NCBI RefSeq assembly: GCF_014696105.1
Contig: NZ_JACJPO010000020.1
Coordinates: 62,001 to 126,000 of the forward strand
Direction of reading: 5' to 3'
Length of the DNA: 64,000 nucleotides
From: Microcoleus sp. FACHB-1515
GTDB taxonomy: Bacteria; Cyanobacteriota; Cyanobacteriia; Elainellales; Elainellaceae
Part shown: in pieces, positions 46,702-53,118 of the stretch
How the letters are laid out: each line of letters starts with the position of its first letter
Numbering within the stretch: position 1 is the stretch's first letter
Translations under genes and position numbers: made by a program
The notes under the pieces: model-generated
Databases searched by the model: none
What the model was told of the DNA's origin: nothing
Seen by the model: only the letters and a program-made list of their open reading frames with translations

Positions 46702-48288
46702 CTACGGCGCTACCACGTAGGGCGAAGGCAGCGGTTGCACCTGTCCTGTGCTGACTAACGCCTGATAGACAAAGGCCGCAACTTCGGCGCGAGTCGCGGT
46801 GCGGTTCGGCTCAAGCTGCGCGACGTTGGGATAGTTGACGATGATGCTGCGCTGGGTGGCAGCAGCGATCGACCCCCGTGCCCAAGTCGGAATTTCGGCA
46901 TTGTCCTGGAAGCGATCGAGATTCACAAAGCTCTCGCTGCTCAACTCCAAGCCGCTCACTAGCGAGACGAGAACCTGGACGCGCGGAATTCGTTCATCGG
47001 GACGGAAAATTTGTCCAGGGTATCCGGTTAGAAAGCCGCCGCGATACGCCGTTTGAATCGCCGATCGCCCCCAGAAATTCGGAGCGACATCTTGAAAGTT
47101 GACGACTCCGCGCTTCGGCTGCGGCGAAAATGCCTGGTTGACGATCGCGGCAAACTGCGCCCGCGTAACCGGATCGTTCGGGCGAAACGTGCCGTTTGGG
47201 AAGCCGCTGATCACACCGCGCTCTGCTAAAGCCGTGATGTAGCCTTCTGCCCAGTTTCCAGCCACATCGCGGAAGTTAGAATTTCCTCCGGCACTAGCGA
47301 CAAACTCGACATCGCCTTGAATGCGATCGGCAGCGATCGTATTGCCGATCGCCACAATTCGATTGCTGCGCGTTTGGTTGTACAGGTCGTAGCGCCCATT
47401 GTTGCGAATGGTGTTGTTGCCTAAACTGTCTGCTGTCCCCAAATTGGGCAGGGCAGAGCCAACGACGATGATGCCGTCGCGAGTATTGTTTTCGATCGTG
47501 TTGCCGCGCAAAATCGGACGGGCAGAATTGCTAATTACGACGCCATCGACGTTGTTGCGGATCTGATTGTCGCGCAGGGTCGGGGTGGACTGGTCGCTAA
47601 TCGCGATGCCAAAGCCCGTATTGTCAAACACGTTGTTGCGAATTTCGCCGCTGGCCGATCGCACAACCGACACGCCATTCCCCGGATTTCGGGTAAACAC
47701 ATTGTCTTGAATCGTCGGACTAGCTGTGCCTGTGACAAACACGCCTTCGCGCAAATTGTCGGTGAACGTGCTGTTGCGGACGATCGCGCTGCCCACTTCC
47801 AGCCAGATGCCCGTGCCGCGAGTATTCGGATTCGTGACGGTGACGCCGCGAATTTCGGCAGTGTTCAGCGCACGAATGGCTGCATTTTGTCCACCAAACG
47901 TCGGACTGTTGAACGTGCCGCCGCCCGCAATCAAAACCCTGCTGCCGTTGGTGGACGCATCGCCCTGTAAGCGAATGTTTTGACCCACCACCAGCGGAAA
48001 CACTTCGCCGCTGTCTCGCGTGTAGCTTCCGGGTGCAAGCTGAATAATCGTTCCTGGCTGAGCGCGTTGCAGCGCATAGGTGATCGTGCGTAAAGCACTT
48101 TGCTCGCTGCCGCCCGCCGTCGGCGCATCCGTTCCCAAGCTGGAATTGACGTAAATCACCGGAGCCGTTGACGGCACTTGCGCCACTTCGATCGAGCCAG
48201 CAGGCACGGCAACCGCAGCCAGCGGCAAACAGCTAGTCAGCAGCAGGGAAGCCGCGAACCCTGCTTGGAGCGCATGTGAAAATTTCAT
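46702..48288 (-). CDS. Exported beta-helix (DUF1565) protein with SLH domains
   Basis: 528 aa from ATG 48288, with a signal peptide (FAASLLLTSCLPLAAVAVP). DUF1565-type start YVNSSLGTDAPTAGG, then a right-handed parallel beta-helix with repeats such as IRNNVDGVVISNSARP and IENNTRDGIIVVGSA (~90-310), then three SLH domains (DVAGNWAEGYITALAERGVI, FWGRSAIQTAYRGGFLTGYP, third at ~455-510). SLH domains in cyanobacteria anchor proteins to peptidoglycan-linked polymer or occur in outer-membrane proteins. Likely carbohydrate-binding or -modifying at the cell surface. Confidence 0.85.
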   Translation of the reverse strand: MKFSHALQAGFAASLLLTSCLPLAAVAVPAGSIEVAQVPSTAPVIYVNSSLGTDAPTAGGSEQSALRTITYALQRAQPGTIIQLAPGSYTRDSGEVFPLVVGQNIRLQGDASTNGSRVLIAGGGTFNSPTFGGQNAAIRALNTAEIRGVTVTNPNTRGTGIWLEVGSAIVRNSTFTDNLREGVFVTGTASPTIQDNVFTRNPGNGVSVVRSASGEIRNNVFDNTGFGIAISDQSTPTLRDNQIRNNVDGVVISNSARPILRGNTIENNTRDGIIVVGSALPNLGTADSLGNNTIRNNGRYDLYNQTRSNRIVAIGNTIAADRIQGDVEFVASAGGNSNFRDVAGNWAEGYITALAERGVISGFPNGTFRPNDPVTRAQFAAIVNQAFSPQPKRGVVNFQDVAPNFWGRSAIQTAYRGGFLTGYPGQIFRPDERIPRVQVLVSLVSGLELSSESFVNLDRFQDNAEIPTWARGSIAAATQRSIIVNYPNVAQLEPNRTATRAEVAAFVYQALVSTGQVQPLPSPYVVAP

Positions 48289-48537
48289 AAGTTCGAGTTG
48301 CCGCAAAAGTGAAGAGGAGCGCGATCGATCACAGCCCGATACGGTTGCGATCGATACCGAAGAAATTGTATAGCAGTGATGCAGCAACAGACCCGCCAAA
48401 CGCGATCGCAGTTCCCCGTGCAAATCGGTCGATCGACAGAACTCAACTCAAAATTCGATCGCTAGAGTGAACCAGAGACAGCCGAGAACCAGAAACAGCC
48501 GATCGCCGTCAAGCACTCTAAACACAAAAAGGAACCT

Positions 48538-49092
48538 ATGGCTTCACGTTTTACTGCGTTGACATCGGCTGCGTTGACATCCGTGCTGCTGACCGTTGCA
48601 GGGCTTGTCTTCACCTCCACTGCGGCACAAGCGGCTGACCAAGTGGTGCTGAAATACGGCGTTTTGGAGCGATCGATCGCCGTTTCTGACCTGGAAGCAT
48701 TTGCCGAAACGGGCGAACTGGCGCGACCCTTACAGCGCTATATTCGCATTTCTGGAGAACAACCAGAGCGAATTCGGCAAACCCTAACGCGAGAATTCAC
48801 CATCAGTCCGCGTCTGCTCGATCGCCTGCTCAACAATCCGATTGGAGAAGCCGCGCTTGATCAGCTTTCGCAAGCGATCTATCCACCTTCGGGTTCTGCC
48901 GATCCTGCCGCACTGCGATCGGCACTTGTCCTTTCCGCGAGCGATGACGATCGCATCAGCATTCTTGAAGTTGTCCGCAACTATCCCACACCGCAGGTTT
49001 ACATCGACGGCGAACGAGTCGTACAGGCTTACAACCAGCTTCGCGACCTGAGCGATCGCCTCGCCCCCATCCTCGAAGGCATCGGAATTTAG
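48538..49092 (+). CDS. Secreted DUF1400-like protein
   Basis: 184 aa with a signal peptide (LTSVLLTVAGLVFTSTAAQA). The mature part (VVLKYGVLERSIAVSDLEAF, FAETGELARPLQRYI, SPRLLDRLLNNPIGEAALDQL, RSALVLSASDDDRISILEVV) matches my recollection of DUF1400, usually the N-terminal module of exported cyanobacterial alpha/beta hydrolases. Here it stands alone without a hydrolase domain. Function unknown. AGGAACC precedes the ATG. Confidence 0.7.
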   Translation: MASRFTALTSAALTSVLLTVAGLVFTSTAAQAADQVVLKYGVLERSIAVSDLEAFAETGELARPLQRYIRISGEQPERIRQTLTREFTISPRLLDRLLNNPIGEAALDQLSQAIYPPSGSADPAALRSALVLSASDDDRISILEVVRNYPTPQVYIDGERVVQAYNQLRDLSDRLAPILEGIGI

Positions 49093-49108
49093 CGCGAAAC
49101 AGTAGCTC

Positions 49109-49294
49109 TTAGTAGGCCAGCGTTTCCAGCGTTTCGCGCAAATAGCGCTGGACGCGCTGATCGAGGCTGAGGACGGCAAGGAACTCTTCGCGCTCGGCCT
49201 GCCAGCGTTGAAAGCCGGAACTTTGGGCGATCGCTCGCTTCAGGCTGTCCCAAACCGCAGCTTCAGATGAATCATGAGAAGTGACAGAGACCAT
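49109..49294 (-). CDS. Small conserved-looking protein, 61 aa
   Basis: Start at ATG 49294, with GGAG eight bases upstream. Helical protein with AVWDSLKRAIAQSSGFQRW and LDQRVQRYLRETLETLAY; I recall similar short cyanobacterial proteins with the same LRETLETLAY end but no function. It converges on the DUF1400-like gene (16-bp gap) and is downstream of the low-complexity-tail gene. Confidence 0.6.
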   Translation of the reverse strand: MVSVTSHDSSEAAVWDSLKRAIAQSSGFQRWQAEREEFLAVLSLDQRVQRYLRETLETLAY

Positions 49295-49371
49295 TTTCAA
49301 TACTCCAGTTCAAATAGCGCTAAAGCTTTTTCCTTAGCATAACGCAGCGGTTTTTTGGGTGCTGTGCTGCA

Positions 49372-50286
49372 TTACACGATCGGCTGTTCCGGCTGGTCGG
49401 TTGCGTCAGAGGTTGCTGGGTCATTGGCGGCGATCGCTTCGCTGGCGATCGCATCTGTTTCGATCGCTTCTTCCAAGTCGGTTGAAGTTGCTTCCGTCAC
49501 GGTTTCTGTCAACTCGGCAGCAACCAAATCGGCTAGCGCAGGCTCATCGTCCGTTGCAATGGACGGTGCAGGGTCGGCTTGCTCTGCGATCGCTTCGGTT
49601 TGGGCAGCGGAAACGGGCGCGGCGACTGAAGGCGGACGAGCAGGAACAGCAGACGGCACAGCAGCGGCAGCAGCAGCCATCGCCAAGGTTTGCGCTTCGG
49701 TCAGTGGCGGCACAATTTGCTTGATTTGCCAGCCGAAAATCGAGAAGTTCGATCGAATCTGCTCGATCGGATAGACATCGATCAAAGCAAACTCCGTTTC
49801 TTTAATCAGCAAGACGCGCAGCACGCTCAGCGACACCTGCAAAAACAAATTGCTCAGCAAAAATCCGCCGGAGGCAATCAGCAAGCCTAATCCGCGCCAT
49901 TGCGGAAACTGCGCGGCAGGTTGCAGCACGAGCGGCGCAATTTGATAAAGCTGAAGCAGCACTGCTCCCAACCCGATCGCCACCAGCAGCGTCAAAATCT
50001 GATGCCCCAGAGTCTTAAAGCGCTTGAGGATGCGTCGCTGATCGATCGTTAAATACTCTGGCCGAATCGCGACGAGCAACACGCTGAAAATATAAAAAGG
50101 CCGCTGCCACTGCATTAAAAAAATCGGCACAATTCCAATCGTCAGCACGATCAGCCGCTCAACAATCGGCGGAAAAATCGGGTCGCCGATCGCCAGCCCC
50201 AGCAGGCAAAGCTCCAGCGTCAACGGCAGCACTGCCACCCCTGCAAGATGAATCCAAAGATACGGATCTGACCAAAACGATCGCAT
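49372..50286 (-). CDS. Low-complexity-tail membrane protein
   Basis: 304 aa from ATG 50286. Residues 1-170 hold about five membrane helices (SDPYLWIHLAGVAVLPL, LIVLTIGIVPIFLM, LLVAIGLGAVLLQLYQ), then a conserved amphipathic part (IDVYPIEQIRSNFSIFGWQI). From ~200 it is an Ala/Glu/Thr/Asp-rich tail. The opening RSFWSDPYLWIHLAG is typical of a cyanobacterial family named for this tail. Function unknown. Confidence 0.8.
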   Translation of the reverse strand: MRSFWSDPYLWIHLAGVAVLPLTLELCLLGLAIGDPIFPPIVERLIVLTIGIVPIFLMQWQRPFYIFSVLLVAIRPEYLTIDQRRILKRFKTLGHQILTLLVAIGLGAVLLQLYQIAPLVLQPAAQFPQWRGLGLLIASGGFLLSNLFLQVSLSVLRVLLIKETEFALIDVYPIEQIRSNFSIFGWQIKQIVPPLTEAQTLAMAAAAAAVPSAVPARPPSVAAPVSAAQTEAIAEQADPAPSIATDDEPALADLVAAELTETVTEATSTDLEEAIETDAIASEAIAANDPATSDATDQPEQPIV

Positions 50287-50497
50287 AGCGCACAACCCAA
50301 GCCACCACTGCAATACTAAGGCAAATAGGTGTAGCGCGAGGAACGGCTCACACGTGCGATCGGGTAAACAAATTCAGTATCGATTGATTCAGAAGTGGAA
50401 GTTGGCGATCGCACTACTGGGATGATTCTATTTGTCGCCGCTGTAATTCGCGCAGAATCGATCGATTTCAGCGGCGTTTCAGTTAAAAAATTTGGAA

Positions 50498-50582
50498 GCT
50501 AACGGCTCAAATCAGCGGCGGCAGGTAACCTCGAACTCTCACCGACAACCTACGTTCCGTCCGCACCAACGCAGTGTTAGCC
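50498..50582 (-). other. attC-like recombination site at the end of the restriction gene
   Basis: On the minus strand GCTAAC (50581-50576, sharing the TAA stop of the endonuclease gene) and GTTAGC (50503-50498) are outer inverted core-like sites. Inside them GCGGaCGG can pair with CCGCCGC leaving one extrahelical base, and ~45 nt lie in the centre. An 85-bp palindrome overlapping a stop codon, with RYYYAAC/GTTRRRY-like ends and an unpaired base in the inner arm, is the architecture of an integron attC site. No integron integrase is seen in the window, so this is a structural inference. Confidence 0.45.
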
Positions 50583-51311
50583 GTCGCCATTACGTTCGAT
50601 CTCGCGCTCAATAATCTCTTTGACAAACTCAGGCAGTTCCTTTTCCACGCTGACAGCCCTTTGCTTGAGCCTTTCATAAATCTCAACCTCATCTCCTTCC
50701 CAAAGCAGATCTATTCTTCTAACCTGTCGCATTGCGATGTGCTCATAGCTTTCTGGATACGCCCAGTAGCAGGATAGACAAATAGACTTATCCTTAATGC
50801 TGTTCCAGTTTTCGCAATGTTCGCATGACCACGATTTAGCCCGGTTAGCAGAGCCACAAAGTAACATGAAGTTCTCTGGGGCTAGATCTGGCTCACCATC
50901 AACTTCAAAAGGAACACGATGATCAATTTGCAACTCGCGTTCATCTACCTCTTCGACATAAATAAAACACTTACATCCGTATCTGCTAATCAGCGCCTCT
51001 TTAATCTGCTTGGATAAACCTGTTCTTCCAGAAAGACGGGTGAATCTTGCCTTGCTAATATCTCCAAATCGATATGCAGCTATTTTTCTGCCGTCACTTC
51101 CAGTAACACGAAAAGTCTCTAACGGGATACCATTTTCTCTGACATCTCTAGCCGCTCTTGGAGGATGGTTATAACCATAGGTTTCTTTCAACTCCTCAGT
51201 CGTAACAAATCCGTGTTGCAAGATGTGATCAATGACCGCTTTAGGCCTCTTTGCTGTTACAGAGCGACAAAGTTCCAAGAAGTCATCGGGTAGCTGCTGC
51301 GAATTCTCCAT
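50577..51311 (-). CDS. HNH restriction endonuclease (type II)
   Basis: 244 aa. The nuclease core is YGCKCFIYVEEVDERELQIDHRVPFEVDG with NFMLLCGSANRAKSW (quoted in parts elsewhere): an HNH fold with QIDH. A zinc-ribbon-like element follows (CEHCENW then CLSCYW). The N-terminal ~75 residues resemble a winged-helix recognition domain (FVTTEELKETYGYNHPPRA). It overlaps the end of the methyltransferase gene by 29 bp, the usual coupling for a type II system. It cleaves DNA at the site its partner methylates; specificity unknown. AT-rich and without HIP1 sites, unlike its surroundings. Confidence 0.8.
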   Translation of the reverse strand: MENSQQLPDDFLELCRSVTAKRPKAVIDHILQHGFVTTEELKETYGYNHPPRAARDVRENGIPLETFRVTGSDGRKIAAYRFGDISKARFTRLSGRTGLSKQIKEALISRYGCKCFIYVEEVDERELQIDHRVPFEVDGEPDLAPENFMLLCGSANRAKSWSCEHCENWNSIKDKSICLSCYWAYPESYEHIAMRQVRRIDLLWEGDEVEIYERLKQRAVSVEKELPEFVKEIIEREIERNGDG

Positions 51312-52236
51312 GCTTTTCCAAGAGGGTTAGCTGCTTTGGTTTCTTGCCAATATCGCTAAAATCACAGATTTTAGTATTCATTAAGCTTTTGGATAAATTT
51401 GTCGATAAGTACAACGACTCAATTGTAGCTTCTTCCTTGCCCAGTAATGTAGACTGTGAGGATCTGCCAACTTCGATTTCGATTCTTTCAAGATTTAAGC
51501 TTTTAGGAAGAACCTTGCCAAAAGCCTTATCACCCAATTTACCGTCGTAACTGATAGCAAACGCAGATCCTTTTCGGTTTAACCGTTCAAGAGCCAACAC
51601 AAAATCATCGAAATTTATGCCAGACAGATATCTTGAATCTCTATTTCCGCATACACCTTGATAGGGAGGATCCATATAAATAAAATCGCCTTCCTGAACT
51701 TGCTCTAATATTTCTCGATAATCTAAACTCGTAAACTTGCATTTGCCTCTGAGCAGACTAGATACACCTGCCATATTTTTTCTCATTGTTTCAGGTCGTG
51801 TTCCTTTGCGTCTTTTGTCCAAACTTTGGTTGAACAATCCTTCAGAATTGTAGCGAACCGAACCTTTAACGCATCTTGCTAGTAGGTAGAGGAACAATTT
51901 TGGATCATTAGTTTTATTGAATTTTGACCTGACTTCAAAATAATGAGCCACAGAATTAGTATGTTGCTCATTCCATAGCTCTAAGTAAGAATCTGCTATT
52001 TCGTCTGGTCTTTCTATAGATAGTTCTAGTAGCTCGATTAGTGGCTTATTCAGATCATTTAACCAAAAACTGTGGCTAATTTGACTTGCAGATGTAGCAA
52101 CACTAATCGCAGCAGTTCCAGCAAAAGGCTCTACCAGCCTATTGAAATTTTTTGGAAAAAACTGGAGGATGTGCTTCGCCAGATTCCTTTTGCTGCCTTG
52201 ATATTGAATGAAGTGGGGTAGATTCGCCATCATCAT
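51283..52236 (-). CDS. D12-class DNA adenine-N6 methyltransferase
   Basis: 317 aa from ATG 52236; three consecutive ATG codons precede ANLPHFIQYQGSKRNLAKHI, so the exact start is uncertain. Motif I is VEPFAGTAAISVA, motif IV is MDPPYQG, and the N-terminal YQGSKR is typical of Dam/DpnM-like alpha-class enzymes. It protects host DNA from the HNH endonuclease encoded downstream. AT-rich coding sequence, no GCGATCGC, different codon use from the flanking genes: likely horizontally acquired. Confidence 0.88.
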   Translation of the reverse strand: MMMANLPHFIQYQGSKRNLAKHILQFFPKNFNRLVEPFAGTAAISVATSASQISHSFWLNDLNKPLIELLELSIERPDEIADSYLELWNEQHTNSVAHYFEVRSKFNKTNDPKLFLYLLARCVKGSVRYNSEGLFNQSLDKRRKGTRPETMRKNMAGVSSLLRGKCKFTSLDYREILEQVQEGDFIYMDPPYQGVCGNRDSRYLSGINFDDFVLALERLNRKGSAFAISYDGKLGDKAFGKVLPKSLNLERIEIEVGRSSQSTLLGKEEATIESLYLSTNLSKSLMNTKICDFSDIGKKPKQLTLLEKHGEFAAATR

Positions 52237-52351
52237 GCAAGAACAAATAATCTTGCAGCAGTTTATCACGATAGCTTGAGCTTGTCGCTTAACTCCAGCA
52301 TTTTTTCAAGAGGGACACAGGGGGCGAGGCTGAAGCCTAAAACGGCTAACA

Positions 52352-52398
52352 ATTTACCGCTACGGAACGTTTCCGTATGATGTCCCGTAGCGGTAAAT
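52352..52398. repeat. Perfect 14-bp hairpin
   Basis: ATTTACCGCTACGG (52352-52365) and CCGTAGCGGTAAAT (52385-52398) with a 19-nt loop containing GGAAcgTTTCC. It lies directly next to a GTTAGCC core-like sequence (52344-52350, minus strand), so it may be part of a degenerate recombination site. Confidence 0.75.
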
Positions 52399-52481
52399 AG
52401 GCTGAATCTTGCCGCATAATGTACTGCTCAGGGTGGTTATGCTGAATTGTTCAGTTTTCTTAATCGTCTTTGACCCAGTTT

Positions 52482-52534
52482 GATACCGTTCCGCAAGCTG
52501 CGCGGCCAGCAGAGCTGATCCGTTCTCGATCGCC
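52482..52534 (+). repeat. 52-53-bp dispersed repeat, copy 2
   Basis: Same ends as the copy at 44806-44857 (GATACCGTTCCGCAAGCT ... AGCTGATCCGT ... GATCGCC) with a few substitutions and a one-base length difference. Intergenic here. Confidence 0.8.
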
Positions 52535-52803
52535 CTACACGCTTGCAAAATTTTTCCAGCTATAGTAGCCTCAATTATCGCTAATTCCGATGCCGCGAAG
52601 CGTTCCAAGGGAGTGCGGCTAACACCCCCAAGGAACTAACCTCCAAAACTGACCATCCCAGCCTGAAGGCTAGCTTCGATTGTATCCGCTGGCCGTCTTG
52701 CTGTCGCAGTGAGGCGGCTTCGTTGTGCATGGAGGCAGGGTGGCAGCGGGCAGGTGCGGTCTGCTCGCTGTGTATCTCGTACCCATCTCATGGAGACAAT
52801 CGA

Positions 52804-53118
52804 ATGACATACGAAGATTACAAAGACGATGACTACGAGGCGATCGAACCGTTCGAGCTACCGGAGCCGTTCTTGCCGATCGAACCGGAACCGCCGCGCC
52901 CCATCTTTTTGCCGCCGATCAACGACCCAGAAGTGTTGCGCGTTTTGGCAGTGGGATCAAAACCAGTGGTGAATCGATTTGTGCATCTGCTGCATCGCGC
53001 CAACATCGCGCACTATGCCGAGTGGACAGTGTTGATTCCCACGCCAAATCCAGGTGAGTTCATGCGAATGTTGACCAAACGGATTCTGCTTCAGCCCGAC
53101 GATTTCACCTCGCGCTGA
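52804..53118 (+). CDS. Small acidic protein of unknown function
   Basis: 104 aa from ATG 52804, preceded by GGAGAC. An acidic, Pro-rich N-terminal third (MTYEDYKDDDYEAIEPFELP) is followed by a compact segment (VLRVLAVGSKPVVNRFVHLL, HRANIAHYAEWTVLIPTPNP, EFMRMLTKRILL). I do not recognise it. Its C-terminus looks like a real fold and HIP1-like codon use resembles the chromosome rather than the restriction-modification pair. Convergent with glgA. Confidence 0.65.
   Translation: MTYEDYKDDDYEAIEPFELPEPFLPIEPEPPRPIFLPPINDPEVLRVLAVGSKPVVNRFVHLLHRANIAHYAEWTVLIPTPNPGEFMRMLTKRILLQPDDFTSR

What the first reader, a model, noticed from the sequence alone, without database searches (positions are those of the whole stretch)
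50498..52350. Restriction-modification pair that looks like an integron-type gene cassette
The endonuclease stop codon lies inside an 85-bp palindrome with GCTAAC/GTTAGC ends and inner arms leaving one unpaired base, as attC sites do; another GTTAGCC sits upstream of the methyltransferase at 52344-52350. The genes overlap by 29 bp and both lie between the two sites. If real, this is a cassette in a cyanobacterium without a visible integrase. Sequence shows the symmetry; attC identity is inference from architecture.
Basis: partly seen in the sequence, partly recalled or inferred. Interest (0 to 1): 0.62.

Follow-up and report, generated by a model that had tools for sequence, protein, structure and literature searches.

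The report
Restriction-modification integron cassette, integrase lost
A pair of genes that protects a cyanobacterium from foreign DNA sits in an integron gene cassette (a mobile gene packet with its own recombination site), next to what looks like the entry site of an old integron whose integrase gene is gone, and the same packet occurs in unrelated bacteria; the kind of element is known, and this is a well-supported new example.

Summary
A covariance model built from 28 attC-like sites of other cyanobacterial genomes (window and R-M loci excluded) gives one hit in 64 kb: 50582-50497 (-), 79.9 bits, E = 4e-20. That structure shows compensatory changes (10 of 19 pairs; 0 of 500 shuffles as good).

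The cassette runs from T52349 to G50503 on the minus strand. Three relatives in unrelated contexts (L017, L018, L021) begin to match exactly at 52350, G|TTAGCC. There the cassette follows an integrase-linked attI (L017), an attI-like site (L021) or another attC (L018).

The flank at 52350-52459 resembles cyanobacterial attI sites better than any of 730 other G|TTR positions in the window. The sister genome G001 shares the right flank up to the same G|TTAGC but has other attC sites, an attI-like site and an integrase fragment there. No full-length intI was found in the home genome, only decayed pieces, with about 13 attC sites scattered over contigs.

So this is a type II R-M cassette in first position of a decayed chromosomal integron. 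Cyanobacterial integrons and R-M cassettes are known; this is a new member of a known kind. Added points: the attI relic, a probably chimeric attC, and the same R-M family with differing attC sites in several other phyla.

The parts
50497..50582 (-). attC recombination site of the cassette (R'' GGCTAAC 50582-50576; R' GTTAGCT 50503-50497; inner arms GCGG-A-CGG / CCG-CCGC)
   Evidence: Covariance model R1 from 28 other cyanobacterial sites: 79.9 bits, E 4e-20, sole hit in the window
50503..52349 (-). gene cassette, from T of TTAGCC (52349) to G of the R' box (50503)
   Evidence: Homology with L017, L018 and L021 starts at 52350 and ends in or at attC; flanks unrelated
50577..51311 (-). HNH-type type II restriction endonuclease, 244 aa; its stop codon lies inside attC
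   Evidence: PADLOC REase_II 4e-60; Pfam HNH 4.5e-4, just under its cut-off; dN/dS 0.05-0.09 against seven relatives
51283..52230 (-). D12-class N6-adenine DNA methyltransferase (ATG at 52230 likely; the open frame reaches GTG at 52269); 29-bp overlap with the endonuclease
   Evidence: Pfam PF02086 2.6e-35, TIGR00571 dam family over cut-off, PADLOC MTase_II 8e-68; DPPY motif in the sequence; dN/dS 0.09-0.15
52350..52459 (-). attI-like site, the cassette's entry point, ending ...CGGAAACGTTCCGTAGCGGTAAATTG|TT
   Evidence: Best summed similarity to 12 attI or attI-like sites among 731 G|TTR positions of the window; two overlapping segments of the same place rank second and third
48104..50503 (-). 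right flank shared with sister genome G001 at about 83% identity; the reliable match starts at the G|TTAGC of the R' box (BLAST extends into the attC to 50535)
   Evidence: BLAST and alignment with G001:C213
52527..53106 (+). multicopy element of about 580 bp with a small ORF, on the other side of attI; related elements lie beside attI-like sites or intI fragments elsewhere
   Evidence: Repeats found in G000 and G001

Best explanation
The R-M pair is an integron gene cassette with one attC site, integrated at the attI of a chromosomal integron that has since lost its integrase. An IntI recombinase presumably joined the folded attC of the circular cassette to attI between G and TT, giving first position and the minus orientation. 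The methyltransferase-endonuclease pair is under purifying selection and most likely still works as a type II restriction-modification system. The integrase gene is gone from this locus, so the cassette is now fixed unless an integrase acts in trans. The attC is probably a hybrid of two attC types, which suggests that a neighbouring cassette was lost by homologous recombination between attC copies. Shown: attC, exact boundaries, attI similarity, selection on both genes, no full-length intI found in the assembly. Inferred: IntI as the agent, enzyme activity, loss by recombination.
For: attC model E 4e-20, with covariation of the model's structure; precise G|TT boundaries in three other genomes, preceded by an intI-linked attI (L017), an attI-like site (L021) or another attC (L018); attI-like flank; sister genome with the same right flank but other cassette content, intI fragment, attI-like site and attC sites; cyanobacterial-type attC core in 151 of 390 and intI over cut-off in 125 of 390 Cyanobacteriia genomes; home genome: about 13 attC sites and intI fragments only; purifying selection; patchy distribution, 5 of 36 searched genomes, counting this one.
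Against: attC folding energy is not exceptional by itself. The attI match is by similarity to sites that vary; ungapped and HMM scores for the exact junction are weak. One attI reference region (C63) scores the window no better than many background segments. The integrase absence rests on a 96-contig assembly. Recombination was not observed.
Confidence: 0.9

Rival explanations
1. The cassette was inserted by an integrase acting in trans at a non-classical chromosomal site (attG), not at a true attI.
For: Other attC sites of the genome are scattered, several of them single; attG insertion is described in the literature (cited in PMC12901181 and PMC12444791).
Against: The 110 bp left of the junction are the best attI match of the window by far (194.5 against a background mean of 107, sd 9), and the sister genome has an integrase fragment and attI-like site about 3 kb from the same right flank.
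Confidence: 0.1
2. The palindrome is a terminator, REP-like element or transposon end, and the R-M pair moved by another route.
For: This site's folding energy is ordinary, and short palindromes are common in bacterial genomes (general knowledge).
Against: Model hit and compensatory changes; the same 86-nt layout recurs in many cyanobacterial genomes; boundaries at G|TT, with attI or attC on the other side.
Confidence: 0.03
3. The cassette lies in a live integron whose intI sits in an unassembled gap.
For: The genome is a draft of 96 contigs.
Against: Estimated completeness is 100%; the attI-like flank continues directly into a repeat element and glgA, without intI.
Confidence: 0.05

Closest known systems
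Sedentary chromosomal integron cassettes (Vibrio, Xanthomonas, cyanobacteria)
   Same: attC layout, G|TT crossover point, first-position insertion at attI; cyanobacterial attC were already modelled as a taxon-specific type (PMC8352920) and intI reported in Cyanobacteria (PMC2426708)
   Different: No integrase gene at the locus and no full-length one found in the genome; one cassette only
CALIN (cluster of attC sites lacking integrase)
   Same: attC-bearing cassette without intI, possibly mobilisable in trans (PMC12444791, PMC9668308)
   Different: CALIN needs at least two attC; this locus has one attC plus an attI-like site
Phage-defence cassettes in integrons, including R-M
   Same: Defence genes, type II restriction among them, carried as cassettes (PMC12409362, PMC12444791)
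   Different: Host is a cyanobacterium; relatives of this R-M family carry differing attC types in several other phyla
Type II R-M systems with D12-class methyltransferase and HNH endonuclease
   Same: Gene pair, overlap, catalytic families
   Different: Recognition sequence unknown; no solved relative of the endonuclease found by sequence

Membership tests
Integron gene cassette (attC) | R''/R' boxes with AAC and GTT cores, L''/L' arms with unpaired base(s) on one arm | tested here: met
   the outer L pairs are imperfect at this copy
Integron gene cassette (attC) | Match to an attC covariance model | tested here: met
   E 4e-20, model built without the window or R-M loci; IntegronFinder's own model was not available
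Integron gene cassette (attC) | Cassette ends exactly at G|TT on both sides in different contexts | tested here: met
Integron gene cassette (attC) | Recombination by an integron integrase | not testable with these tools
   Needs a bench assay
Complete integron | Functional intI next to attI | tested here: not met
   No intI at the locus; genome-wide no hit over the family cut-off, only decayed pieces
Complete integron | attI at the cassette entry side | tested here: met
   By similarity only
CALIN | At least two attC sites without intI | tested here: not met
   One attC at this locus; C52 and C63 of the same genome each have two attC within about 1 kb
Type II restriction-modification system | DNA methyltransferase and restriction endonuclease side by side, both intact | tested here: met
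Type II restriction-modification system | Sequence-specific methylation and cleavage | not testable with these tools
   Needs long-read methylation data or purified enzymes

The most novel reading that the evidence does not exclude
Cyanobacteria share a large, uniform pool of attC cassettes; in this lineage integrases were repeatedly lost beside related small repeat elements, leaving attI sites with frozen cassettes, and homologous recombination between the conserved attC bodies trims arrays and leaves chimeric attC sites, a route of cassette loss that needs no integrase.
Probability: 0.3. Interest if true: 0.55.

Novelty: new member of a known kind. Interest (0 to 1): 0.4.

Why it matters
It shows with exact junctions that a restriction-modification pair travels as an integron cassette in cyanobacteria, and gives a natural series (intI fragment beside attI, attI without intI) in which integron decay can be studied. 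The same R-M family has attC-like sites of differing types in several other phyla, so it may help to show how genes gain attC sites.

Tried and rejected
Folding energy as a test of attC: uninformative for this site. Rfam search: nothing relevant. A first strict attC scanner of my own missed real sites. A mistyped pattern gave no hit in the genome. An ungapped attI matrix and an attI HMM were too rigid; the anchored alignment test replaced them, after the first two had been seen to fail at the exact junction. I rejected a terminator, a REP-like element and a transposon end as the nature of the palindrome. Pfam HNH alone is just under its cut-off, so the endonuclease call rests on PADLOC and on its place beside the methyltransferase.

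Full report
Observation. Sequence and ORFs confirm the two overlapping genes, the GCTAAC/GTTAGC ends, the endonuclease stop inside the first box and GTTAGCC at 52344-52350 (minus strand). The methyltransferase belongs to the D12 class (2.6e-35) and the endonuclease to a type II family (4e-60). The closest solved structures of the methyltransferase are Dam and DpnII methylases; the endonuclease has none by sequence. dN/dS is 0.05-0.15 for both genes against seven relatives, so both are kept by selection.

attC. Sites of the type TAACACTGCGTTGGAGCGGAC (up to 2 mismatches) occur in 151 of 390 Cyanobacteriia genomes, while the reversed control pattern almost never matches. Twenty-eight sites from such loci and from intI loci, with neither the window nor any R-M locus among them, were aligned. 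Most were found with that same 5' core pattern, so the conservation of the 5' arm in the model is partly by selection; the 3' arm and the pairing were not selected for by that search. The named structure (R arms, L arms with two unpaired bases on the 5' side) is paired in 88% of cells, with changes on both sides in 10 of 19 pairs; no shuffle of 500 reached these values, and sliding the partner destroys them. The model finds one site in the window, 50582-50497 (-), E = 4e-20.

Boundaries. Of the R-M relatives, L017, L018 and L021 match the window from exactly 52350. Left of G|TT the 40-nt flanks agree at 23-40%, near chance level; right of it at 62-88%. L017 has an integrase fragment directly upstream in divergent orientation, L021 an attI-like site, L018 another attC. 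In other phyla attC-like hairpins follow the same genes, for example L055, L057, L064, L070, L072, L092 and L093. In the endonuclease tree each of the two attC labels needs one change when set against the other; rows in no group, most of them loci where I saw no attC-like site, were not counted, so gains and losses of attC among them were not tested.

attI. Compared with 12 attI or attI-like sites (nine of them next to an intI gene in other genomes, in L017 a fragment), the 110 bp ending at G52350 score 194.5 in sum; 730 other G|TTR positions of the window have mean 107 and sd 9, and the next two are overlapping segments of the same place. Against L149, L143 and L139 alone (intI-linked, other genomes) no background segment scores as high. 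Three of the 12 references, from the home and sister genomes, were picked after I had seen that they resemble the window.

Sister genome and home genome. G001:C213 shares the right flank down to 48104 and up to G|TTAGC. On the other side it has an attC-like half site, an IS110-type transposase gene (named from its sequence), another attC, an HNH gene, an attI-like site and a truncated integrase. No R-M endonuclease was found in G001, which is 82% complete. The home genome has 13 attC hits with E below 1e-3 and two weaker ones. Its integron-integrase relics are fragments at C53 and C83. C53 has an attC-like site and an attI-like site beside its fragment, and C63 has an attI-like site followed by a GNAT gene, an attC, a PIN-domain gene and a second attC, without intI.

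Chimeric attC. The 5' L-arm of the window's attC pairs better with the 3' arm of other copies of the R-M cassette (-13.8 kcal/mol) than with its own (-10.2), and its 3' arm pairs better with a 5' arm of another attC type found at C52 of the same genome (-13.4). L201 shows the same more strongly (own -5.9, best -14.1 and -20.7). IntI crossover at G|TT would not make such hybrids; homologous recombination between two attC copies, which deletes the cassette between them, could. This step is inference.

Known or new. Integrons in cyanobacteria (PMC2426708, PMC8618304), a cyanobacterial attC model (PMC8352920), intI pseudogenes (PMC2426708) and defence or R-M cassettes (PMC12444791, PMC12409362) are published. 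I found no paper on this R-M cassette family in cyanobacteria in the library searched, which is not the whole literature. The finding is a new member of a known kind.

Noticed in passing
52527-53106: Small multicopy element of about 580 bp with a short ORF. A related family lies where intI is cut off at C53 and in G001:C213 (both fragments end in EKTA*) and next to the intI-less attI-like site at C63; related copies occur at other places too.
   Followed up: partly
L203 2153-2240; L015 1439-1524; L237; L233; L234: Further attC-bearing sites in the home genome, beside a HAD-like hydrolase gene, a glycosyltransferase-like gene, a GNAT gene and PIN-domain genes; names from sequence inspection.
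   Followed up: partly
L126 8663-9412: IS110-type transposase gene a few hundred bases from a half attC in the sister genome; IS1111/IS110 elements are discussed together with attC sites in the literature.
   Followed up: no
L128, L139, L143, L149, L156 upstream of intI: Cyanobacterial attI regions contain several spaced inverted repeats before the G|TT point; they could support a general attI model.
   Followed up: partly
L201: A clear chimeric attC: 5' half of one type, 3' half of another.
   Followed up: partly
L020, L022, L031, L033, L036, L039, L040: R-M copies without a recognised attC still end in a GGC-TAA or similar stop context, perhaps remnants of decayed attC sites.
   Followed up: no
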